44,292 nucleotides of DNA, taken from NCBI GenBank assembly GCA_023250095.1, contig JAHFBI010000005.1, forward strand, positions 1 to 44,292, written 5' to 3'. The notes beneath the pieces were generated by a model, which worked only from the letters and a program-made list of their open reading frames with translations, did not search any database and was not told where the DNA came from. Shown here piece after piece: positions 8,950 to 40,130 of the stretch. The DNA is from Candidatus Melainabacteria bacterium. Lineage in GTDB: Bacteria > Cyanobacteriota > Vampirovibrionia > Obscuribacterales > Obscuribacteraceae. Each line of letters opens with the position of its first letter. Position 1 is the first letter of the stretch. A program made the position numbers and the translations under genes.

Positions 8950-11900
8950 TTAATAGACCGGTTCGGCAGGACGTCCAGCCAGTCCGGTATTAGGAGCAAC
9001 AACCGGCTCGACGTAAGGCCCTTTGTATCTGTCGAACATCCAGTTGATGACCGCTGCCGTTTTCATTATCTCGGAAACGGTGGCTATGTCGCCTTTGGCT
9101 GGCGAGTGGCGCAGATCCTGGAGGAGCGGGTGCTTGATCAAGGCGTCGAGGATGGAGAAGTCGTTGGTGACAACGCGCATCCTGTCGACAGCGACTACAC
9201 GATATCCCCTTCTGGAGAGACCATCGGCAAAGACCACCGGCAGAGGATCGCGTGTTGTGTCGACAACAGCAGCTTCCTTGCCCGGGAACAGTGTCAGAAC
9301 ATGCTTGCCAATGAGAATCGATATGGCATCCTTGTTGCGGTCGGAAAGATCGCGCACGCGCGTTATCTTGGATCCAACCGAAACCAGCACGATTGAGCCG
9401 ACATTAGCAATTATTCCTGCATGAGGCGTATTTATTGCCAGCTTATTTCTCACGTTGACGATCACACTTCCGAGATCAAGCGTGTAAACATTCTCGCCAG
9501 CCTGGGACAGGCGGGCGCGCCGTCCAACCGTGAAACCAGGTGGGCTGAGGCTGGGCGCGACAGTCGCCACATTGAGGAAGTGATCATCAGCATCAGCCTG
9601 CATCGTTGAACCTCTTGCCTCAAGGCTCTGGAGATTGCTGGAAACTGGGGTCCTCAAAGAAACTGGCGAGAGCGACGCGGAAAGATCAGCACCGGGAGGA
9701 GGTGCAGAGGAGACTCCATCTGGCTGTTGCCTCAGGAGGTTTCCGGCCGGTCCGAGTTTGTCGGCAGGCGAGCCCACCTGGGCTAGATCCGGTCCTCGCT
9801 GGCTGTATTTGGCTTCTAGCTGATTGCGTAGAGCGCACTGCCGGCACTGGATGAAGACCATCTTCGGAATCTCTTCCGGAAGGTTCGAAGCAGCGCGTAA
9901 GATGAACACGTTGTTATGCTTTTCCAGTCTCCCCTCAAGGCGCAGAGGAGCTGTTTTTTCGACCCTTCCTTCCAGAGGCGGCCTTTGCGCCACGGTCAGC
10001 GGATTTGTTTCGCTGATCAAGAGCTCTTCTCCAGGCGCAATAGTATATTTTTCACCTTCGACGTTGACTGTTACACCATCAGGCTCGGTAGCATCAAGAG
10101 CCACGATGCGCACGGGAGCATTTTCCGGCGACTCGATAAGAGCCACAGCATTTGCCTTGAGCGTTACCTCACCTTTCGCTGGATTGATCGTCAAGCTTTC
10201 ATCGCCGGCTTTGACAATGGCGCTGCCATTGCTCATCACCAGTTGTTTTCCTTGTGCGACCGCCAGTTCTGTTCCAGAGGTAGCCTGCAAATAGCTCTCT
10301 TTCATATCCTGAACGAACCAGGCAGTGCAAGGATTCTGAGCGACTACGGCAGGCAAGCCTGGTGCCAGAGCCTGTAGCGCTGCTGGCCCTTGTACGGCTG
10401 CGAGCACAGCTTGAGTCGGCGGTCCCGGCGGGGTCGGCGGTGGTGGCGGTGGGAAACATTCCGTGGGTGGTGGCGGCGACGGTGGTCCCGGGCATTCCGG
10501 GGCAAGCGGCGCTAAGGGCGGTGTCGGGCACAAAGGTGGTGTCGGCGGTGCTGGTGGCTCGGGCAACAAACAAATTATCGGCGGGGGCTGGCAGTCAGGC
10601 GGCAGCGGCGGGACCGGCGACTCCGGCAGCACACAACCGGGGTTCTCGGGCGGGCGGCAATCCGGACGGACCGGTGGAGGACACAAAGGCGGCGGTGGGG
10701 CCAGGAAACATCCTGCCGTGAGGCTGCTGTCTTTGATCATGATATGAAAATTGTTGGAGTCACCGCCTGAGTGCATGTAGATGATTCCATCGCTGACCTT
10801 GAAATCGCTGCTCAGGACATGGACAAGAGAGTCGCCGCCATTGAGGTCGATCATGCCGCCATCGGACACGTCGATCATCGAGGGATCTCCGCCTCCTCCA
10901 TGCTGAGAAATAGGGTCGTTGGCGGCATTGGTCTGCGAGCTGAATTGATTCGGCGTGGGATCTATATGGGTGTTATTGCTGCTGCTGCCCTCGAGAATGA
11001 AAACATTCAAGGACGGGTCCGGAGCCGGCAGCGGCGAGGGAGTATTCATGTGCGTGACAATATAGATGCCTCCGCCCGGTCCCGCGCAAGTGCCGTTCGG
11101 GAGCTGATATTTAGTGGCGATGAGCACATTGTCGAACTTCATATCCACCGAGATGAAAGCGTTCATGACGATGTTGCCGCCGAAGGCTGAAAGCACATTT
11201 GTCGGTTGCTCGTCTGGAAGCGACTCATTGCCAATGCCGCCGCTTGTGCCGTCCAGTTCTATGTGACGCGCGCTTGTGATGAATATGTTCCCGCCGTACA
11301 CTCCGGCAAAGTTACCGTCGAATCCGGGCAGGAAAGCCGAGCTATAGGCTGTAAGCACATTTCCTGTATCGATGAAAACATCCTGATTATCCTTTGTGCC
11401 AGTGGACGTCAGGGACAGATCGCCGCCCACGACGGTAATGATGTCATCGACAAAATGGATGCTCCTGGCGGTAAATGCCAGATTGCTTCCCTGGACTGTG
11501 AGAGTCTTGCCTGTAAGGTCCAGATCGCCTTGTAGGGTGATGGAAATAGTTGAAGGTCCTCCTCTGGGCTGAAAGGTGCAAAGCTTGTTGTCTTGTCCGA
11601 TGTCGATCGTGTCGCTGTTGATGATTATATGTCCGCCGACAGCATTGAGGTCATTGGAAGTACCCAGATTGATATTTCCATCTGCCGCGGTAAGCAGGAT
11701 GCTGCCGCCAATCAAAGGATTACTCAAGGAAAAGAACGCATTGAGCGTATTGTCAGAGCCGAGATCTATATCGCCGCCATGGCTGGTCAGGGTCAGATCA
11801 CCGCCTCCAGCTGCCAAGGTATCGAACCTTCCCAGATAGATGCTTCCCGCTGGTCCGCCGGACCGTCCGGCTATAAGACTTACCGCTCCTTGATTGCTTT

Positions 11901-14900
11901 CGAGGACGTCATCGAGCCCGAGTGAAATATTCCGGCAGGCAACAAGCGAGATATTGCCCGTGTCGGCGCAAAGGTGATTGTTTCCCAGATCCTCGTTCTC
12001 ACCTATATAGCCGAACTTTATGTCATGTGCACTTGCAAGAGATATGGAGCCGTTTGCGAAAACCACATTGTTTTCTACAAGATAGATGTCTGCGGTATCA
12101 CCGGATGTGATACCGACGTTACCACCTGAGGCTGTGATGCTGTTGCTCGTCAAAATTACGCCGTGGGCACTTAGAAGCGACACATCGCCGGCAGCGACCA
12201 TATTCTGCCCGGTCAGGCTCAAGTCAGTATTTACGATAATCGAGATATCACCTAGACCTTCATCGCCAGGCTTAAATGTACAGAGATGATTGCCCGGCGC
12301 TGAAATTACGGTACCGAAAAGGCTTTGCAGAAGGATTGAGCCGCCGACGGCGTTGAGATCGTTGCCAGCGCCAAGGGTGATATTCTGCCGGGCGACAAAT
12401 GTGATATTGCCGCCCACGGAAGAGCCGTCGGCAAAAGTGTTGAAAGCGTTGAACGTATCATCTGCGCCGCTTGTGATGAAGCCGTGGGCGGCAAGAGACA
12501 AATCCCCGCCGACGGCATTGAAGAGATTATCTTGTCCTAGGCTGATATCGCTGTGATCTGACACCAGGCTGATATTGCCGCCAACGGCGCTCCTGCCTAT
12601 TACAACACTATAAGCATTGACAGCGTCAGTACGCCCCGATGTTATGGGTCCGCCTGCTAACACGTCGACACTACCGCTCACTGCAGAAAGAATGTCATAT
12701 GAGCCCAGAGAAATGCTGCCATCCGCGGCTCTCAGCTCGATATCACCGGCACCGCTTGTACCTTGCCTGAAGGCGTTTAATATATTGTGTGATCCCAGAT
12801 TGATATTTCCGCCAAAACTTATGAGGCGCAGATCGCCTTCACCAGCGGACAGTGTATCCTCGCTGCCAAGGATGATGTTTCCGCTGGATTTACACTTCTG
12901 CCCGGCTATAAGAATCACAGACCCATGGTTGGATTCCAGGCGATCGCCAAGTCCAAGCTCGATATTCTCACAAGCTATCAGACGGACATTGCCTCTGTCT
13001 GCGCAAAGGTGATTATTGCCGGATGCCAACTCGTAGGTCTCTCCTAGCTTGATGTTTCCACCGGCGGTCAAAGTTATCGAATCACCCGCAAAGAGTGTGT
13101 TGTCCGCTAGAAGGCGGATGCTGTAGTGAGATCCGCTTCCAATTTCAATATTGTCGCCTGCGGCAATGGTATCGGAGCTGAGCCTCACGCCCCTGTCGCT
13201 TGTGAGCAACACATTGCCGGCCGCTGCGAGATTCTGTCCGGTCAAAATAATGTCCTCAGTGGAATTGATTACGATATCACCGCTGGCGACATCATCGCCT
13301 TCAGCAGGTTTGCCTGCGAAAGTGCAGAAGGAGTTGCCCTCCTGCGATTCGACCGTGCCGTTCAAGGCAGTCAGCGTGATGTTCCCGCCCACTGCATTGA
13401 AATCATTCCCCGAAGAAAGAAGTATGTCCTGAAAAGCAGTGAAGGCAATATTGCCGCCGACTGAGCTGCCGCCCACAACGGCATTGAAGGCATTGAAAGT
13501 GTCGTCGACACCTGTTGTGATGCTCCCGAGCGCGGCGTCAACTTCCACATTGCCGCCGACGGCGTTGAAAGTATTCGAAGCGCCCACGTTTACGTTGCCG
13601 CTTCCTGTTGCTTTCAAAGTGATATTGCCACCGACTGCGCTTCCAAGCGAGACAGCGCCGAAAGCATTCAAGTCAGCACCCTCTCCGGTTGACAGGTCGC
13701 TAGAAGACGAAATGGCAAGATCACCGCCCACTGCATCAAGAGTGTTGCCTGCACCCAGAGAAACGCCGCTGGAGTCCGAATCGATAGTGATATTGCCCCC
13801 GGAGGACGTGCCGTTTGTTACGACATTGAAAGCTGCAAGCGAGCTTCCTTCTCCGGTTTGGATATTTCCCGGTCCACTGATAAGAGCAATGTCGCCTCCG
13901 TGCGCATCGAGAGAATTATTGTCGCCCAGAGCTATCCCGCCGGCAGGGGCGCTGATTGTCACATTCCCCCCGGCTGCCTCAGTCGTTTTCTCCGACTCGA
14001 TAATGATTCCACAAGACTTGAGGCTGTCGCCAGCGCCTGTGGTTACATTGCTTGCTGACGATGAAATCGTCAGGTCCCCCCCGACTGCAGCTAGTTTGTT
14101 GTCATCGCCCAGAGCCACTTCGCCGCCGGCGCACAAGTTGACGGCACCGCCGGTTGAGATGTTGCCGGAAATAGAGTTGAAAGCGTTGAGCTCTACTGCG
14201 CTCCCTGTGGAAATACCTCCGCTTTTGGCTGTCAACTTAAGATCTCCGCCTGCGGCATTGAATGAATTATCCGCCGAAAGAGAAATGTCTCCGGCGGTGG
14301 ATGCAAGACTTATGTCGCCGCCGACGGAACCACCATTGACCTGGTTGGCGAAGGCGTTGACTGTCGATGAAGAGCCGGTCGTCAGATTCCCGCCGGCGGA
14401 GATCTGAACATTTCCTCCGACGGCATTGATAGCATTGTCATTTCCCAGAGAGACCCCGCCGTGCGGGCTAACCAAAGTCACGGAACCTCCGTCCGACTCG
14501 TGATTGGCAGTGAGCCTGAAAGCATTGAGGGAAACATTGTCGCCGGTGACGATATTGCCGCCGCCAGCTACTGCGCTGGAAACAAAGATGTTACCGCCAA
14601 CGGCATCTAACGCCGTGGCACTTGCCAGAGTGACATCACCGTTAAGGGCGAAGAGTGATATATTGCCGCCGATGATGGGATCTTCCCCCTGGTCTGCCTG
14701 CTCAAAGACCCCGCAAGCATGAAGTTTGTCCTCCTCGCCGGTGAAGACATTTCCACACAGACTCGAAATATTGATATCGCCGCCGTTGGCGGTCAAAGAA
14801 TTACCGCCTGCAGAAACAATGTCTTTGCCGGCGATGAGACTGATACTTCCGCCTGATGGAAATCCGTCAACATCCGCGCGCCAGGCTCCGTAGGATCCAT

Positions 14901-16746
14901 CTAAGCCAAGAGATATTCTGTTCCCGGCAAAGAGGAAAAGGTTGCCGCCCACCGAATTGAGCGTGTCCTGGGAAAGAAGGATACTACCGGACAGGGCGCC
15001 CAGCGATATCGAGCCGTTGAACGTTGCGATGGATTTGCCAGGCGCCATGATGATGTCGCCACTTGTGCTGAAAGCGTTTAGACCGCCCACCAGATTGGAC
15101 ACATTATTGAAGTTTATGTCGCCGCCGGAGAATAAATTGATTGAGGGTGCCCGCTCTTGCATCAGACCGCTGTCGCAGATGTGCAGGTCGCCGATGGTTA
15201 TGGAACTCCTCGATTCTTCGCCTGATAGGGCAATTAGATTGATTGAATTGTTATTGGTCGTCAAAGCAACAGTTGGCAAAACAATACTTCCGCCAAGCCC
15301 GCTTGCACCAGTTATGGTGAAATTAGGGTCGCAAAGCGAGCAGGCAACAGGGCTGGCACCACCGCTTGTGGTAAAGGAGACGCCGGCGGCAAGAGTGATC
15401 TTGCCCCCTGCCCCCAGCGGATTTGTAGCATCGATTAAGGCATCGGCAGGCGCCCCGGGAGCGATGATACTGCCGCCGGAGAGGGCGACGAAATCCTGTC
15501 CTGCCGTGAAGAATGTCGAGCCGCTGCTAAACAGTCCGCTAAGATCAAGATTACCGAGAACATTATAGAAAAGGGGATCTTCGCTCAATTGCATACTGGC
15601 AAGGCGCAGATCTCCTTGATTTACACCAACGGCAGCCGTGCCCGCAGTAAGCGTCACACCCCCGGTTATTCTATCTGAGTAAAGTGAGACGGTGCCTTGC
15701 GGGCTTTTAAGAACAAGTTGCGGGGCGTCAAATACGCCACCTGACACCGTGAGCAAAGCCCTGGACACCAGATTGCCGCCTGCGTCGAGAGTCGATCCTA
15801 GTGTTTCCAGAAGAATCGTGTCGTGTGCCGAGATCAAGCCCAGAGAATTATTGATAACAAGAGTATTGCCGGATACGTTGCTTATATTCACGTTTGCCCC
15901 AAGAGACTGCATGACTGATGAATTCACAAGACTTGCCGTGTAAGCGTTTAGGCTGCCAAGTTGAGCCTGCATCAGTCCGGAATTTACTATTCCGGCAGCT
16001 TGAAGATTGAGGGAATTCATGGCCATAATGACCGGGGTGGGACCTGTTATCCCGGCAGGCAAAGTGTTTCCAATTGTGCCTCCGGCTGTCAACGACAGTG
16101 CTCCGGAGCTGGAGATTACACCGGCATTCATAATGTCTTGAAGCGCGTTCAGATTGAAATTGAGACTGGAAGTAGCGCTAACTATTCCACCGATGCCGCT
16201 CGTTGGGAAGATGGATGACAGGACGGCGCCGGGCTGATTATAGATATTGACGGCGTTGATACTGGCGGAAAGCGTGGCGGCACTTGATGTGTAAGCATAG
16301 AAAGTGCCGTAATTGGTCAGATTTCCCAGCAGATTCAAAGACGCAAGAGTCGTCGCATTATAAAGAGCCGTCACCCCATTCGGTATCACTGCATTTGTGA
16401 TCGTCATATTCAGGGCATCGCGAGAGATATCGAATGTCCCGCCTACAGCCGCGCCACCTGTACCAAGGATCAAAGACTGTACGCCGCCGGACAGCACCTG
16501 GTGGACCGCAATATGCTCAGCCGGGGTCAGGGGGTCTGAGGCTGTGACCGTTCTGGTCGTTCCGCCTTCCTGAATAACAACTGAAGTAAATCCATCGTGG
16601 TGGGCGGCGGTTGTGCAGGCTTGTGTGGCAGTCAAGTCGGCGTCCGAATCACAATGCGCCAGAGCGCCAGGGGCTGTAAACAGCACCAGTTGAACAGCAA
16701 GAAACCCTCGAGCAATTGCCCTTACGGCGCTTTTAAAATATCTCAT
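8950..16746 (-). CDS. Giant exported filamentous-haemagglutinin-like repeat protein with FecR-like domains
   Basis: The protein has 2598 residues. The frame runs further upstream to 16827, but the ATG at 16746 has AGGGG upstream and begins a clear signal peptide (basic n-region, FLAVQLVLFTAPGALA, cleavage near Ala-His). Residues about 600-1710 are a beta-helix-like array of glycine/asparagine/serine-rich repeats with the recurring kernel LNAVGG and SLGxxNxL, as in FHA/Hep_Hag-type surface proteins. Then come a proline-rich hinge (about 2013-2113), a FecR-like domain (about 2153-2249, with NGSAIVKAG and TIAPGEELLIS), a CRQC motif and a second FecR-like segment (about 2413-2506, GSVIVNVRNKLAI through LTLFPGKEAAVVD). 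I see no autotransporter barrel, LPXTG motif or adjacent TpsB gene. It is probably cell-surface or secreted, for adhesion or sheath formation; the export route is unknown. Confidence 0.85.
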   Translation of the reverse strand: MRYFKSAVRAIARGFLAVQLVLFTAPGALAHCDSDADLTATQACTTAAHHDGFTSVVIQEGGTTRTVTASDPLTPAEHIAVHQVLSGGVQSLILGTGGAAVGGTFDISRDALNMTITNAVIPNGVTALYNATTLASLNLLGNLTNYGTFYAYTSSAATLSASINAVNIYNQPGAVLSSIFPTSGIGGIVSATSSLNFNLNALQDIMNAGVISSSGALSLTAGGTIGNTLPAGITGPTPVIMAMNSLNLQAAGIVNSGLMQAQLGSLNAYTASLVNSSVMQSLGANVNISNVSGNTLVINNSLGLISAHDTILLETLGSTLDAGGNLVSRALLTVSGGVFDAPQLVLKSPQGTVSLYSDRITGGVTLTAGTAAVGVNQGDLRLASMQLSEDPLFYNVLGNLDLSGLFSSGSTFFTAGQDFVALSGGSIIAPGAPADALIDATNPLGAGGKITLAAGVSFTTSGGASPVACSLCDPNFTITGASGLGGSIVLPTVALTTNNNSINLIALSGEESRSSITIGDLHICDSGLMQERAPSINLFSGGDINFNNVSNLVGGLNAFSTSGDIIMAPGKSIATFNGSISLGALSGSILLSQDTLNSVGGNLFLFAGNRISLGLDGSYGAWRADVDGFPSGGSISLIAGKDIVSAGGNSLTANGGDINISSLCGNVFTGEEDKLHACGVFEQADQGEDPIIGGNISLFALNGDVTLASATALDAVGGNIFVSSAVAGGGNIVTGDNVSLNAFRLTANHESDGGSVTLVSPHGGVSLGNDNAINAVGGNVQISAGGNLTTGSSSTVNAFANQVNGGSVGGDISLASTAGDISLSADNSFNAAGGDLKLTAKSGGISTGSAVELNAFNSISGNISTGGAVNLCAGGEVALGDDNKLAAVGGDLTISSSASNVTTGAGDSLKSCGIIIESEKTTEAAGGNVTISAPAGGIALGDNNSLDAHGGDIALISGPGNIQTGEGSSLAAFNVVTNGTSSGGNITIDSDSSGVSLGAGNTLDAVGGDLAISSSSDLSTGEGADLNAFGAVSLGSAVGGNITLKATGSGNVNVGASNTFNAVGGNVEVDAALGSITTGVDDTFNAFNAVVGGSSVGGNIAFTAFQDILLSSGNDFNAVGGNITLTALNGTVESQEGNSFCTFAGKPAEGDDVASGDIVINSTEDIILTGQNLAAAGNVLLTSDRGVRLSSDTIAAGDNIEIGSGSHYSIRLLADNTLFAGDSITLTAGGNIKLGETYELASGNNHLCADRGNVRLIACENIELGLGDRLESNHGSVILIAGQKCKSSGNIILGSEDTLSAGEGDLRLISFGGNINLGSHNILNAFRQGTSGAGDIELRAADGSISLGSYDILSAVSGSVDVLAGGPITSGRTDAVNAYSVVIGRSAVGGNISLVSDHSDISLGQDNLFNAVGGDLSLAAHGFITSGADDTFNAFNTFADGSSVGGNITFVARQNITLGAGNDLNAVGGSILLQSLFGTVISAPGNHLCTFKPGDEGLGDISIIVNTDLSLTGQNMVAAGDVSLLSAHGVILTSNSITASGGNVGITSGDTADIYLVENNVVFANGSISLASAHDIKFGYIGENEDLGNNHLCADTGNISLVACRNISLGLDDVLESNQGAVSLIAGRSGGPAGSIYLGRFDTLAAGGGDLTLTSHGGDIDLGSDNTLNAFFSLSNPLIGGSILLTAADGNINLGTSNDLNAVGGHIIINSDTIDIGQDNKLCTFQPRGGPSTISITLQGDLDLTGKTLTVQGSNLAFTARSIHFVDDIITVVGGDLSLTSTGTKDNQDVFIDTGNVLTAYSSAFLPGFDGNFAGVYGGNIFITSARHIELDGTSGGIGNESLPDEQPTNVLSAFGGNIVMNAFISVDMKFDNVLIATKYQLPNGTCAGPGGGIYIVTHMNTPSPLPAPDPSLNVFILEGSSSNNTHIDPTPNQFSSQTNAANDPISQHGGGGDPSMIDVSDGGMIDLNGGDSLVHVLSSDFKVSDGIIYMHSGGDSNNFHIMIKDSSLTAGCFLAPPPPLCPPPVRPDCRPPENPGCVLPESPVPPLPPDCQPPPIICLLPEPPAPPTPPLCPTPPLAPLAPECPGPPSPPPPTECFPPPPPPTPPGPPTQAVLAAVQGPAALQALAPGLPAVVAQNPCTAWFVQDMKESYLQATSGTELAVAQGKQLVMSNGSAIVKAGDESLTINPAKGEVTLKANAVALIESPENAPVRIVALDATEPDGVTVNVEGEKYTIAPGEELLISETNPLTVAQRPPLEGRVEKTAPLRLEGRLEKHNNVFILRAASNLPEEIPKMVFIQCRQCALRNQLEAKYSQRGPDLAQVGSPADKLGPAGNLLRQQPDGVSSAPPPGADLSASLSPVSLRTPVSSNLQSLEARGSTMQADADDHFLNVATVAPSLSPPGFTVGRRARLSQAGENVYTLDLGSVIVNVRNKLAINTPHAGIIANVGSIVLVSVGSKITRVRDLSDRNKDAISILIGKHVLTLFPGKEAAVVDTTRDPLPVVFADGLSRRGYRVVAVDRMRVVTNDFSILDALIKHPLLQDLRHSPAKGDIATVSEIMKTAAVINWMFDRYKGPYVEPVVAPNTGLAGRPAEPVY
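10410..10710 (-). repeat. Proline-rich low-complexity hinge
   Basis: About 100 residues are dominated by PP, PPP and CPPP-like blocks with regularly spaced cysteines (LCPPP, DCRPP, GCVLP, DCQPP, ICLLP, LCPTP, ECPGP, ECFPP). It separates the beta-helical repeats from the FecR-like domains. The plus strand is strongly G-rich (GGCGGTGG words). Confidence 0.85.
11620..14960 (-). repeat. Intragenic repeat array of the haemagglutinin-like gene
   Basis: The kernel (L/F/I)(N/D)(A/S)(V/A/H)GG appears at least eleven times, each copy flanked by GG-N-(I/V/L) and LG-x-x-N motifs, with varying spacing. At DNA level this appears on the plus strand as recurrent GCCGCCxACxGCxTT-like words. Long antisense frames (for example 13439-14407) are a by-product of the repeat composition. 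Confidence 0.75.
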
Positions 16747-18145: not shown

Positions 18146-20116
18146 CTATTTGCCCGGAGCCCTAAGCAGAACTCGCCCGGATGTAAGACGGCGCGTGATT
18201 TTTTGATCGTCAAAATATTGCAGCAGGGCCATGGCATATTTGCGAGTAGTAGAGAGTGTCTCGCGGAAGTCCGACGGAGCTATATTTCGCTTTGTATTCC
18301 AGATATCGGATAGAACCTGATGCGCCCGGAGAAGGTTGGCCGGGCTGATAACAAACTCGTAATTGACAATGTGTGCCCGTCCCGTTTTCTCGAGAGCTTG
18401 CGCGCCGGCCTTGACTGTTGCGCTTCCGGCACCGCAAAGTTCAGCCAGGTCGTCAAAATCCAGACAAAGATTCTTTTCCAGCGCTTCAGCCATCCTGTCC
18501 TGCAAAGCCACAAAGGCCGGATCAGCCTGCCGCTCAAGGGGGGCATGGGCGGAAAACAGCCTGTCGCCCTTTCTTACAATCCGTGCGTGCTGTGTCTCTT
18601 CTTCCAGTAAAATCTGAAAAGTCTGGCGATCGAGTTTGGGCATGAGATGAAGTCTCAGGCTCTCCAGAGGAAGCCCTTCTTCCTCCAGCCCCTCGTGTTG
18701 CTGGTTGGACTTTGTGGCGTGCTCGATCTGCTTGGCGACTCGCTCGGTCAGCTCTTTGCGCATTTCTTGAGACATGATTTGCTCACCGAGCCGCACAAGT
18801 CGCCCTTCCTCGATGAGCCTTTGCATTGCCTCAGACGCTGCTGTTTCGGGCACGAATGAGCGTACGAGGGTTTCTTTGACAAGACCTTGTGGGCAGGACT
18901 TCAAGAAAGAAAGAATGGCATCCTCATATTTATGGTCGAGAAGATGTCCGGCGAGCTCAACAAGCCCGGAGCGCTTGATCCAGCGCGGGCGCTCGCAAGA
19001 GAGGATCTCTCCGCCATAGATGGTCTCATCGCTGAGGCGCACGACGAACCGATCAGCCGCGGAGGGCACCACTTGATCTGACAGAGCGATAAAAGCGATT
19101 GTTTCAAGCGTGCTGTCGGCAGCTTTCTGCCTGGCAGGAAGTTCTTCAACCCAGCGAATAGAGCCGTGGCACTCCGCTGTTCCATGATAGAGACGGACAG
19201 GCTGCCCGCTCAAGCGTTCAGCGAACTTGGAGCCGCTGGATACCCCTTTCTCCACAAGGCTGACAAGTAAATTCTTGCAAGGCGTGATCGGCTCGCCAAG
19301 AACGACATGTCCTCTGGCGAGGGTGACGTTATCCTTGAGCACGAGATTTACTGCTACGCGCTGTCCAGCAACAGCGGTGTTTACCGTCGCCCCGAAAGTC
19401 TCCAGCCTGCGTATTCTCCCGGAAGTCACGGAAGGACCGATGCTCACCTGATCCCCGATATTCAGGAGCCCCTTCACAAGGGTGCCTGTGATGACTGTTC
19501 CGAAGCCGGACTTGCTGAACACCCGGTCGATTGGCAGAAACGCGCCGCCCCGTATGGCGCGCGCCGGCTCCTTCTCCAGATGTTTGACAAAGGAAAGCTT
19601 CAGCTGGTCTATCCCGGTCTTCCTGGTGGAAGAAAGAAAACAAATTTCAAGCGGCTCGACATCCCACTTCAGTAAAAGCTCTTCGATTTCCTGGCGGACG
19701 ATATCGAGCTGCTCTGCGTCGTCGACAAGATCCACCTTTGTGACGGCGACAATAGCCTTCCGCACGCCAAGATAGCTCAGAATTCTCACGTGTTGCTTTG
19801 TTTGCGGCATGGGACCTTCGTCGGCTGCCACCACAAGGAGCGCCATATCGATGCCGCCCACGCCGGCCAGCATGTTCTTCAGAAATTTGCCGTGTCCGGG
19901 AACATCTACGAAACCAACAACCATTTGCTCCGACAGGCGCAAATGAGCAAAGCCCAGGTCCGTCGTCATCTGTCGTTCCTTCTCTTCTTTCAAACGATCA
20001 GGATCGATGCCCGTGAGCGCCCGGATCAAACTGGTCTTGCCATGATCCACGTGACCGGCGGTGGAGATTGTAAAGTGGCGGGTGGTTTGCTGAAATTGTG
20101 AATCAGTTGCACTCAT
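18146..20116 (-). CDS. selB: Selenocysteine-specific translation elongation factor SelB
   Basis: This 656-residue GTPase delivers Sec-tRNA to UGA codons marked by a SECIS element. G1 is GHVDHGKT (21-28), G3 is DVPGH (71-75) and G4 is TKVD (126-129). After the G domain come EF-Tu-like beta-barrels ([26 protein letters not shown]) and a long C-terminal winged-helix region. The C-terminus carries the SelB-specific block [20 protein letters not shown] followed by TRRL, which separates it from EF-Tu and CysN. E. coli SelB is slightly shorter (614 residues). No selA, selD or recognisable tRNA-Sec lies within the window; its neighbours (a receiver and a DedA gene) are unrelated. A weak AAGG lies before the ATG. 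Confidence 0.93.
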
Positions 20117-24959: not shown

Positions 24960-25982
24960 ATGGTAGACGTAAGCAAAGAAGTCGAGTCCACAGTCAAAGA
25001 CGGCAGCGGTTTCTCCGACATGAATGGAGCCGAGCAAGCCTATAGAAAAATGCAAACCGACGTAGCGACCTTTCAGACACAGCACGCTCAGGGAACGCAA
25101 GAATACAAAGATTATGTAAGCGGCGTGGCAGCCGGGCTAGAAAAAGCAGGCACTCTGCCAGCACTTTCGGTTTTCTGGGCCCAAGACACGCTCCATCGGC
25201 TGCCGGCAGGGCAGCATGGTCTTAAGTCGGCTGACATACAATTTGCAGCTGATGCCGCCAAAGTCGATCCTAACCTTGCTCTGTCCAGCGCGCTTGCCAC
25301 CGGGCTTCAGTCGAAATACGATCAGCTGAAAGGAGCCAATATCGATTTGGATCCGGCAACCGATGCCGAAATGGATATGATCACGCCTGCCGACCTTGTG
25401 CAAGCTCGCAAGTTTGGAACCGCTGAAGCTAGTCTTCTCTCCTGTCAGGGACAGGTCACCGGGCTTACAGGCGAAAGGGACACCCTGACCAAGGCAAACG
25501 GCGATCTTGCCAATCAGGTCACCGGGCTTACAGGCGAAAGGGACACTCTGACCAAGGCAAACGGCGATCTTGCCAATCAGGTCACCGGGCTTACAGGCGA
25601 AAGGGACACCCTGAATAAGGACAATAATGCTTTGCAAGCTGAGAAAACACAACTTCTGGCACAGCGAGACAAAGAAGATTCTGAAAGGAGACAGGAGCAT
25701 CAGCAGGCAACGATAGCCGAGATCACGAAGAAAGCCCAGCTGCAAGCAGGAAATGGCGAAGGATACTGGCATCTGGCATCCCGCCTGCTGAATACAGATG
25801 GGCACAAGCACAAAAATAACGAGATTGTCTCTGTGATGAAACATCTGCAAGACATCAATCACAACAGAGCCCTGCTTAAAGGAGAAGCCGTACAGGTCAT
25901 GAGCGTTGAAGAAATGAACAAAGCGCTTGCCGAAAGCATGAAAGTATACGATGAGAGAGAGTCCAAGAGACGCTCGCCTTAA
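24960..25982 (+). CDS. Coiled-coil protein with three tandem 21-residue repeats and LysM-like C-terminus
   Basis: This 340-residue protein starts at the ATG at 24960, 7 nt after AGGAGG. Residues 1-160 are helical and polar, with no signal peptide. Residues 165-227 are three consecutive 21-residue units (QVTGLTGERDTLTKANGDLA plus N), predicted to continue into a coiled coil rich in Lys/Glu/Gln. The C-terminal region (AGNGEGYWHLASRLLN, then LLKGEAVQVMSVEEM) is reminiscent of a LysM-type repeat (a GxGYW-like start and an L-x-x-G-x-x-V end), but this is a weak match. LysM-like ends would bind peptidoglycan. A strong terminator follows. The role is unknown; it could be a cell-envelope or phage-like structural protein. 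Confidence 0.75.
   Translation: MVDVSKEVESTVKDGSGFSDMNGAEQAYRKMQTDVATFQTQHAQGTQEYKDYVSGVAAGLEKAGTLPALSVFWAQDTLHRLPAGQHGLKSADIQFAADAAKVDPNLALSSALATGLQSKYDQLKGANIDLDPATDAEMDMITPADLVQARKFGTAEASLLSCQGQVTGLTGERDTLTKANGDLANQVTGLTGERDTLTKANGDLANQVTGLTGERDTLNKDNNALQAEKTQLLAQRDKEDSERRQEHQQATIAEITKKAQLQAGNGEGYWHLASRLLNTDGHKHKNNEIVSVMKHLQDINHNRALLKGEAVQVMSVEEMNKALAESMKVYDERESKRRSP
25452..25640 (+). repeat. Three tandem 63-bp repeats
   Basis: Units are 25452-25514, 25515-25577 and 25578-25640. The first two differ by only one visible base (ACCCTG versus ACTCTG). The third matches for about 38 nt and then diverges after CTGAATAAGG. The period keeps the reading frame (21 codons). Confidence 0.95.
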
Positions 25983-38015: not shown

Positions 38016-38648
38016 TTATTCGACCGGGATGTAAATATCGACCTCGCTTTCAGGAGATTCAGACTTGAAGCGCTGGTCGTACAACTCGAAGCTGGGAGCA
38101 TTTCTGTATTTTTCTCTGGTCCGCTTGAGCCAGCTTCCCCAGATGTAATCCATGCTTGAGGAGAGATTCGCAAGCGGCCCCTTGTGCGTAAATACGGCGT
38201 AGCGGCCAGCAGGAAGTTCGACTTTTACCATAGCGTCGGGTAAAGCCTCTGCGCGCGTGACCGGCACCGCAGCAACATATACATAGGCATCGCCCGGGCG
38301 GCGGGAAATTTCCGATAGTCCAGCACAGGATATTCCAAGCGTGTGAGTCCCCTTGGCACTGGGGACTTCCTGAATACGTGGCTTAAACCGTTCCCAGAGA
38401 TGGACAATTTCTTTAGAGCCTTCAAGCGAATAGCTAGCCCCCATGCCAACGGCCAGCTCGGCCTCGCGCTGGACAATCTTCGGCTCCAGGCTGGTCAATG
38501 AAAGCGGTGTCTTTACACCGGCTGTTGTCCCCGTTGCCTTTGGAATGACAGCAAAACTGTCACTCCAGTCTGCTCGACTCGGAGCTAGAGAAAAAATGAC
38601 CAGCGCAATGGCTGCGCTGGTTCCATAGCCAAGTAGCTTATCCAGCAT
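38016..38648 (-). CDS. Exported GyrI-like / effector-binding-domain protein
   Basis: This protein has 210 residues from the ATG at 38648, preceded by GGGGGAG. It starts with a signal peptide or membrane anchor (LLGYGTSAAIALVIFSLAPS). Residues about 60-210 resemble the GyrI-like/Cass2 effector-binding domain of AraC-type regulators: LEPKIVQREAELAVGMGASY, HLWERFKP, YVYVAAVPV, LPAGRYAVFTHKGP, then PSFELYDQRF and SEVDIYIPVE. Effector-binding domains usually occur in cytoplasmic regulators; here it is alone and exported, so it may capture a small molecule in the periplasm. It is closely related to the C-terminal half of the protein at 39240-40130. Confidence 0.82.
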   Translation of the reverse strand: MLDKLLGYGTSAAIALVIFSLAPSRADWSDSFAVIPKATGTTAGVKTPLSLTSLEPKIVQREAELAVGMGASYSLEGSKEIVHLWERFKPRIQEVPSAKGTHTLGISCAGLSEISRRPGDAYVYVAAVPVTRAEALPDAMVKVELPAGRYAVFTHKGPLANLSSSMDYIWGSWLKRTREKYRNAPSFELYDQRFKSESPESEVDIYIPVE

Positions 38649-39239
38649 GGCTCCCCCTGCAAATGGCATGCCAACTTACTTTCCCGAGGCAAGTACAGCG
38701 CATGTTCCTGCCCATCTGGCAGCTATTGCATACTGCCGCTGCCAGCTTTGGGCAACTGGACGCCCTGATTTATAAATTCTAGGTGAGATTCCAAATTGAC
38801 GCAACTCAGGCTGCAAGCACTACTACCCCTTTGAATAAACATGTCGTTGTGTCTAAAAAGACACCCTGACGGCAGGATCGCTGTCTTGCCAACAGAGGCA
38901 TCTGTCTGACTCAACGAGATCGCAAGGAATCTGTATGTGCGACCGCCTGCACTGGCACTCGAGCCCATCCTTATTCCAGAGGTTGTTTGAAGACGGGATT
39001 CAGTTGGCGGGTTTTGCTCTGCCCGAAAAACAGTCAGCAGCTAAAATTTCTTTCAATTGCTTGCCTGCCTGCACTACTGGAATAGGTACTCAAAAGATGG
39101 GGCTGGAGCCCCTCTTGCCTGCCAGAGCTTTGGCTCTTGAACCTGTCTGTAATTGCCGCGGCGATCCTGTACGATTCGAATCAGCTACACTTATGCCCTC
39201 TAATTGCAGCATTGCTGAACATAGCGCAGGTAAGCACCA
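38649..39239. other. Gene-free divergent spacer between the two effector-binding paralogues
   Basis: Open frames on both strands (for example plus 38935-39243 and minus 38723-38968) have no ribosome-binding site and no recognisable composition. One short perfect hairpin lies at 39099-39112 (GGGGCT/AGCCCC). The promoters for both genes should lie here. Confidence 0.4.
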
Positions 39240-40130
39240 GTGATAAATCTAAAAGGGTATCTCCTGGCAGCGTCTTTCATAGGAGTCTTCGCCAGCGCAA
39301 TCGCTGCTTTGCCAGCACGGACGGGCTTTGACAAGGCCGTCCAGGATTACAACACGCACAATTATTCCCGGGCACTTTCGGCCTTTCAGAAGATCCTTGG
39401 TGTGAACCCGCAGGACGCCGAGACGCACTACTATATTGCCCTTTGTTACCAGGCTCTTTCCCAGATTGCTGCCGCTGAGAGCGAGTATAAGTGGGTCTCC
39501 AGTAACTCGCAGAACCAGAGCCTTCGAAACAATGCCAACCAGGCGCTGCAAAATATTCAGGCCTGGACTGCTCATCGCACCAGCTCCGGGCGCGGCAATA
39601 ACTTCCAGAGCTCTTCCACACGCCCCTCCGGCAACCCACCCCTGCTCAGCCTTCAGCCCAAGATCGTTACACGGGCTTCCGAACAGGCGCTTGGGATCGG
39701 GAGCAGTTATGCGCCCAACAGCTCCAAGGAAATTGCTGGTCTATGGGAGCGCTTCACGCCCCGCATTCCGGAGCTGCCCAGTGTGGAGGGAACTTATTCT
39801 CTCGGCATTTCAAGTACAACAGCATGTGCTGGTATTAAATTGCCCCCTGGCAAAGCCTTTGTATATGTTGCCGCGATGCCGGTCAAAGACACAGAGCAGA
39901 TCCCGGAAGGAATGGTGAAGATACGGCTCAACGCCGGGCGTTATGCGGTCTTCACGCACAGGGGCCCGACGTCCGACTTGCAGCGCAGTCTCGACTATAT
40001 CTGGAAAACCTGGCTTCCGAAAGCCAACGTGAAATACCGCGATGCTCCATCTTTTGAGTTGTACGATCGGCAGCGCTTCAATGCGGATTCGGCCGAATCC
40101 GAGATAGACCTCTACATTCCAATCCAGTAG
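39240..40130 (+). CDS. Exported TPR-plus-GyrI-like effector-binding protein
   Basis: This protein has 296 residues from a GTG. The signal peptide (LLAASFIGVFASAIAALPA) is followed by two TPR-like units (YSRALSAFQKILGVNPQDAE; ETHYYIALCYQALSQIAAAE), a Ser/Asn/Pro-rich linker (about 115-135) and a C-terminal GyrI-like effector-binding domain. That domain is clearly paralogous to 38016-38648: both share LxPKIV, GRYAVFTH, the GP after it, LDYIW or MDYIW, PSFELYD and AESEIDLYIP or PESEVDIYIP. The fusion of a protein-interaction module to a ligand-binding domain suggests a periplasmic sensor or carrier. The ribosome-binding site is weak; the start is the least certain part. Confidence 0.82.
   Translation: MINLKGYLLAASFIGVFASAIAALPARTGFDKAVQDYNTHNYSRALSAFQKILGVNPQDAETHYYIALCYQALSQIAAAESEYKWVSSNSQNQSLRNNANQALQNIQAWTAHRTSSGRGNNFQSSSTRPSGNPPLLSLQPKIVTRASEQALGIGSSYAPNSSKEIAGLWERFTPRIPELPSVEGTYSLGISSTTACAGIKLPPGKAFVYVAAMPVKDTEQIPEGMVKIRLNAGRYAVFTHRGPTSDLQRSLDYIWKTWLPKANVKYRDAPSFELYDRQRFNADSAESEIDLYIPIQ

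What the first reader, a model, noticed from the sequence alone, without database searches (positions are those of the whole stretch)
8950..16746. 2598-residue FHA-like protein with two FecR-like domains and a Cys-Pro hinge
The architecture (signal peptide, LNAVGG-kernel beta-helix, cysteine-punctuated proline hinge, FecR-like, CRQC, FecR-like) is not a standard autotransporter or two-partner exoprotein: there is no barrel and no adjacent TpsB. FecR domains normally sit in anti-sigma/TonB signalling, so their presence at the end of a giant adhesin suggests anchoring or contact sensing.
Basis: partly seen in the sequence, partly recalled or inferred. Interest (0 to 1): 0.65.

Follow-up and report, generated by a model that had tools for sequence, protein, structure and literature searches.

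The report
Order-wide C-terminal tag on giant proteins
A non-photosynthetic relative of cyanobacteria carries a 2598-residue exported, rod-like protein that ends in two FecR-fold domains, and the last of these is a tag found within a few residues of the end of dozens of exported proteins, up to 25,007 residues long, throughout its order and nowhere else searched, so it may be an undescribed way of holding giant proteins in the cell envelope.

Summary
The gene is real, but lies on the minus strand (8950-16746, 2598 aa). It encodes a signal peptide, an N-terminal beta-helical cap (AlphaFold pLDDT 90), a long repeat region, a Cys-Pro hinge and two homologous all-beta domains, F1 and F2, joined by a linker with CRQC. 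FecR: the Pfam profile (PF04773) finds neither domain, but in a structure search the best four PDB hits are all FecR-family anti-sigma proteins, so the FecR-like call holds as fold, not as sequence family. The architecture is not a one-off. F2 (~180 aa, absent from Pfam/NCBIfam) occurs in 49 of 53 genomes of the order (Candidatus Obscuribacterales), up to 54 matches per genome, and in none of 236 genomes of other orders of the class. In 75 proteins it ends a median of 3 residues before the stop; proteins run from ~230 to 25,007 aa. The order lacks TpsB and TPS domains, which sister orders have, and has essentially one Omp85. Best reading: lineage-specific exported beta-helical giants whose C-terminal FecR-fold module anchors them in the envelope, working like the periplasmic prodomain of FhaB but without TpsB. 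Anchoring and the outer-membrane route are inferred. Sigma-type contact sensing is not supported.

The parts
8950..16746 (-). whole gene, 2598 aa (stop codon 8950-8952)
16654..16746 (-). Sec signal peptide, about residues 1-31
   Evidence: sequence; 28 of 30 complete F2-bearing frames show a comparable N-terminal hydrophobic segment
15367..16665 (-). N-terminal beta-helical cap domain, residues 28-460; shared by paralogues and by the 25,007-aa protein of another genome
   Evidence: AF2 pLDDT 90, pTM 0.88; weak fold resemblance to TPS secretion domains
10867..15366 (-). repetitive passenger, residues ~461-1960, kernel GG[DNS][ILV], about 24- and 56-residue repeats; taken to be beta-helix
   Evidence: inference for the fold of most of it
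14182..14472 (-). DUF2345 match, residues 759-855 (35.7 bits, E 9e-9), best of 2 stretches
10411..10710 (-). Cys-punctuated proline hinge, residues 2013-2112
   Evidence: found in 4 further F2 proteins from two other genera
9994..10302 (-). F1, first FecR-fold domain (AF2 core residues 2149-2251)
9835..9846 (-). CRQC (C2301-C2304) in the F1-F2 linker; linkers carry at least one Cys in 32 of 35 F1-F2 proteins, often as CNxGC
9001..9546 (-). F2, second FecR-fold domain with beta-hairpin and three-helix tail (AF2 core residues 2401-2582): the order-wide C-terminal module

Best explanation
This is one member of a large, order-specific family of exported giant proteins. A Sec signal peptide takes the chain to the periplasm [inferred from sequence]. 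The N-terminal cap folds as a beta-helix [AF2] and probably starts the folding of a long rod-like passenger that is displayed outside the cell [inferred]. The C-terminal module (proline hinge, F1, cysteine linker, F2) is a folded envelope anchor or retention plug: it stays in or at the outer membrane or periplasm and holds the rod on the cell, much as the retained C-terminal prodomain of FhaB does, but without a TpsB partner [inferred from strict C-terminal position, diverse passengers, multicopy presence and the periplasmic character of the FecR fold]. The outer-membrane translocation route is unknown.
For: F2 ends a median of 3 aa before the stop in 75 proteins, 71 of them within 20 aa. 28 of 30 complete F2 frames have a signal-peptide-like start; one of the two exceptions has such a segment further in, after an in-frame extension. 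Proteins range from signal plus F2 alone (234-aa frame on C5) to 25,007 aa. F2 in 49/53 genomes of the order vs 0/236 in the rest of the class. N-cap and F2 copy numbers correlate across 27 genomes (Spearman 0.86). TpsB 0/27 and TPS 0/27 in the order against 9/13 and 6/13 in sister orders, while Omp85 is present, essentially one per genome: an outer membrane without two-partner secretion. FecR-family periplasmic domains are the best four structural hits of the C-terminal module; the PupR domain 6OVK is periplasmic (PMC7186176). FhaB precedent for a C-terminal part retained in the periplasm: PMC11077949. Melainabacteria are inferred to be diderm: PMC4040986.
Against: No localisation data. Small F2-only proteins show that F2 does something without a giant passenger. 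Only 34 of 75 F2 proteins have a detectable F1. No translocon was identified, so the giants could remain periplasmic. The C-terminal AF2 model rests on 7 sequences and the FecR match has modest TM-scores (about 0.35 by target).
Confidence: 0.5

Rival explanations
1. F2 is a C-terminal sorting or secretion signal (like the CTD of type IX secretion or PEP-CTERM): it is recognised by a dedicated, still unknown machinery and directs export across the outer membrane, perhaps being cut off afterwards.
For: Strict C-terminal position, order restriction, many copies on passengers of very different size, including small ones; the order lacks TpsB.
Against: F2 is larger (~180 aa) than typical sorting tags; no partner machinery was found or sought beyond TpsB, TPS, Omp85 and TonB plug; no cleavage motif seen.
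Confidence: 0.25
2. F1-F2 work as a FecR/PupR-type sensor: contact on the adhesin is passed to a TonB receptor or sigma pathway.
For: FecR-family fold, which in PupR binds a TonB-dependent transducer (PMC7186176).
Against: No anti-sigma segment, no TM helix, no STN-like beta-alpha-beta tail in the AF2 secondary structure, no sigma or receptor gene in the neighbourhood, 0-2 TonB plug matches per genome in the order against up to 54 F2 matches.
Confidence: 0.07
3. It is a highly diverged two-partner-secretion adhesin: the N-cap is a TPS domain and a diverged TpsB lies elsewhere in the genome.
For: Foldseek's top (insignificant) hit of the N-cap is the HMW1 TPS domain 2odl (E 0.13); EtpA, HxuA and HpmA secretion domains are also listed. 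Sister orders have TPS systems.
Against: hhalign N-cap vs TPS domains of sister orders prob 0.5%; PF03865 and PF05860 absent in 27/27 genomes of the order; essentially one Omp85 per genome.
Confidence: 0.13
4. The giants are periplasmic or envelope scaffold proteins and are never displayed.
For: Sec signal, no known outer-membrane translocon.
Against: Lengths up to 25,007 aa are hard to house in a periplasm; beta-helical rods are typical of surface adhesins (established knowledge).
Confidence: 0.05

Closest known systems
FHA/FhaB and HMW1-type two-partner-secretion exoproteins
   Same: Sec signal, N-terminal beta-helical cap, long beta-helical rod, C-terminal proline-rich part; in FhaB the C-terminal prodomain is retained in the periplasm (PMC11077949)
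   Different: no PF05860 TPS profile match, no TpsB in the genome or the order, C-terminus is a tandem FecR-fold module
FecR-family anti-sigma regulators (PupR CCSSD 6OVK; BDI_1681 4M0H/4M0N)
   Same: all-beta fold of F1/F2 (best four PDB hits)
   Different: no PF04773 match, no anti-sigma domain or TM helix, F2 tail is hairpin plus three helices, not STN; located at the C-terminus of giant exported proteins
C-terminal sorting or anchoring domains (T9SS CTD, PEP-CTERM, SLH)
   Same: strictly terminal, multicopy, on passengers of very different size, clade-restricted
   Different: no sequence relation detected by Pfam/NCBIfam; partner machinery unknown

Membership tests
Two-partner secretion exoprotein (TpsA) | N-terminal TPS domain (PF05860) | tested here: not met
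   no Pfam hit; 0/27 genomes of the order; hhalign to TPS prob 0.5%; only a weak, insignificant fold resemblance
Two-partner secretion exoprotein (TpsA) | cognate TpsB barrel (PF03865) | tested here: not met
   none in the own genome or in 27 genomes of the order; 9/13 in sister orders
Two-partner secretion exoprotein (TpsA) | Sec signal plus long beta-helix passenger | tested here: met
   (cap by AF2; rest by repeat period)
Classical autotransporter | C-terminal beta-barrel | tested here: not met
   no barrel family; AF2 shows a folded non-barrel C-terminus
FecR domain (PF04773) | profile match above the curated cut-off | tested here: not met
FecR domain (PF04773) | FecR/PupR-type all-beta fold | tested here: met
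   Foldseek: 4m0n E 9e-5, 4m0h, 6ovk E 1e-3, all prob 1.00; modest TM
FecR/PupR cell-surface-signalling regulator | anti-sigma domain, TM helix, C-terminal STN, cognate TonB transducer | tested here: not met
C-terminal sorting/anchoring domain (functional class) | strictly C-terminal on diverse exported passengers | tested here: met
C-terminal sorting/anchoring domain (functional class) | dependence of surface location on the domain | not testable with these tools
   needs an experiment

The most novel reading that the evidence does not exclude
Obscuribacterales replaced two-partner secretion with a still undescribed surface-display system: a beta-helical N-cap plus a FecR-fold C-terminal module serve tens of giant exported proteins per genome, up to 25,007 aa, with a translocation and anchoring machinery not yet identified.
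Probability: 0.35. Interest if true: 0.82.

Novelty: new variant of a known kind. Interest (0 to 1): 0.62.

Why it matters
An undescribed protein module, not in Pfam or NCBIfam, marks the C-terminus of tens of exported proteins per genome in a whole order of non-photosynthetic cyanobacterial relatives, including one very large open frame (25,007 codons). The order lacks the two-partner secretion that its sister orders use, so it poses a testable question: how are such giants exported and held? It also shows the FecR fold in a role that appears not to be sigma regulation.

Tried and rejected
Pfam on 14 F2-family proteins besides the window's: no passenger domain named (one sub-threshold Vault_3 match). 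PDB sequence search with F2 and N-cap profiles: only chance-like hits, the best two for F2 being designed Ig-type proteins at E 0.003. Foldseek vs viral structures: nothing. Viral contig scan with the N-cap: none confirmed. F2 alignment A1 and N-cap alignment A3 were too diverse for the search for related loci; a three-row N-cap alignment worked. Literature: no paper in the library mentions both Obscuribacter and FecR; a survey of huge proteins does not mention the group. Rejected: standard autotransporter, TPS member, sigma-signalling FecR.

Full report
OBSERVATION. The frame is real but is on the minus strand: ATG at 16746, stop at 8950, 2598 aa. It opens with a Sec signal peptide, has a glycine/asparagine-rich repetitive body (GG[DNS][ILV] 38 times; repeat lags of 56 and 24 residues above the best of 50 shuffles), a hinge at 2013-2112 with 9 Cys among prolines, and a C-terminal part with CRQC at 2301-2304. 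Neighbours are divergent or unrelated: a TPR protein and a prolyl-oligopeptidase-like gene on one side, a response-regulator-like frame and a SelB-like gene on the other (names by my reading of the sequences).

FECR OR NOT. Neither domain is found by PF04773 or NCBIfam, alone or in context, and the only PF04773 hit in the genome is elsewhere. Profile-profile comparison with FecR domains from the order and class gives 29% for F2 and nothing for F1, while F1 and F2 match each other at 97.8%. AlphaFold of residues 2140-2598 gives two confident islands, 2149-2251 (pLDDT mostly 80s) and 2401-2582 (mostly 80s and 90s), with a disordered linker. Against the PDB the best four hits are FecR-family anti-sigma proteins: 4m0n (E 9e-5), two chains of 4m0h, and PupR 6ovk (E 1e-3), all prob 1.00; the fifth hit is noise at E 0.04. 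TM-scores are modest (0.34-0.36 by target). So: FecR-like fold, not FecR family by sequence. In PupR the all-beta juxtamembrane subdomain is followed by an STN domain (PMC7186176); F2 is followed by a hairpin and three helices in the AF2 secondary structure, so the tail differs.

NOT A ONE-OFF. F2 recurs in the own genome (alignment A1) and, with a profile, in 25 of 27 genomes of the order in the first survey, up to 54 matches per genome (some matches are F1). A wider survey gave 49 of 53 genomes of the order and 0 of 236 genomes of other orders of the class (Fisher p 3e-51), and 0 of 385 further genomes in a phylum sample, of which the listed ones belong to a sister order of the class. Named loci with the N-cap are Candidatus Obscuribacterales, Obscuribacter and Melainabacteria records, an 'uncultured bacterium' bin and one record labelled Chloroflexi.

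ALWAYS AT THE END. In 75 distinct F2 proteins the domain ends a median of 3 residues before the stop, 71 of 75 within 20; 34 have a detectable F1 upstream. Of 30 frames complete at the N-terminus 28 show a signal-peptide-like hydrophobic segment. One exception, L026, has such a segment further in; the other, L088, is a gene split in two frames. Protein lengths run from 234 aa (signal plus F2) to 25,007 aa (G021:C2, L124-L127), and the latter shares the N-cap, F1, the cysteine linker (CNTGC) and F2 with the window protein. The F1-F2 linker has at least one Cys in 32 of 35 cases. The Cys-Pro hinge occurs in four more proteins in two other genera; the closest, L046, is 39% identical over the C-terminal 648 residues, hinge and CRxC included.

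THE N-CAP. Residues 28-460 fold with pLDDT 90, pTM 0.88. The top PDB hit is the HMW1 TPS secretion domain, and EtpA, HxuA and HpmA secretion domains are on the list, but no E-value is significant (best 0.13), and hhalign to TPS domains of sister orders gives nothing. I read this as at most a TPS-like architecture. The N-cap is found only in the order (21 of 27 genomes; 0 of 13 outside), and its copy number follows that of F2 (Spearman 0.86). Four genomes have F2 and no N-cap, none the reverse.

RECIPROCAL PATTERN. TpsB barrels: 0/27 in the order, 9/13 in sister orders. TPS domains: 0/27 against 6/13. Omp85: essentially one per genome in the order (none detected in two, two matches in one). Published gene content also points to a diderm envelope (PMC4040986). 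So these bacteria have an outer membrane, no detectable two-partner secretion, and many F2-tagged giants.

MECHANISM. Best-supported: exported beta-helical giants retained in the envelope by a C-terminal FecR-fold module, comparable in logic to the periplasmic prodomain of FhaB (PMC11077949), with no TpsB. Shown: strict C-terminal position, export signals, multicopy and clade restriction, fold. Inferred: display, anchoring, site of F1-F2. Unknown: translocon, ligand. A sorting-signal role is the main rival. Sigma signalling is disfavoured by architecture and by the scarcity of TonB plug domains (0-2 matches per genome in the order).

LIMITS. The genomes are mostly draft assemblies of varying completeness; the genome search uses a loose first look; absence of a Pfam hit is not absence of a diverged homologue; the C-terminal AF2 model has 7 rows; the signal-peptide call is a hydrophobicity heuristic. 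No experiment bears on localisation.

Noticed in passing
G021:C2, loci L124-L127 (joined frame, minus strand): A single uninterrupted 25,007-codon open frame with signal peptide, N-cap, F1, CNTGC linker and F2; other F2- or N-cap-bearing frames of 10,000-15,561 codons exist in G008, G011, G021, G101 and G116.
   Followed up: partly
L082:9689-16186 (JAGVKB010000081): F2 protein whose middle looks to me like a glycoside-hydrolase-type segment rather than beta-helix; Pfam gives no hit, so passengers may include enzymes.
   Followed up: partly
L034, L058, L062, L063, L066 (about 317-383 aa): A distinct subgroup of small proteins with a hydrophobic N-terminus, mostly a proline-rich stretch, and one F2, resembling each other across five genomes; may be an order-wide orthologue and a good handle on F2 function.
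   Followed up: no
G012, G003, G099, G114: Four genomes of the order without a detectable F2: useful contrast set for finding the partner machinery.
   Followed up: no
L088 (JAKFUT010000311): An N-cap/F2 gene split into two overlapping frames, i.e. a frameshift in the gene or the assembly.
   Followed up: no
window 18146-20116 (-): SelB-like selenocysteine elongation factor next to the gene; selenocysteine use in this genome was not checked.
   Followed up: no
window 25452-25614: 2.6 nearly identical 63-bp tandem repeats (98% matches) coding a coiled-coil-like VTGLTGERDTLTKANGDLANQ unit.
   Followed up: no
window 38016-38669 (-) and 39240-40130 (+): Two divergent genes encode similar C-terminal domains (GyrI-like effector-binding by my reading), one fused to TPR repeats.
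   Followed up: no
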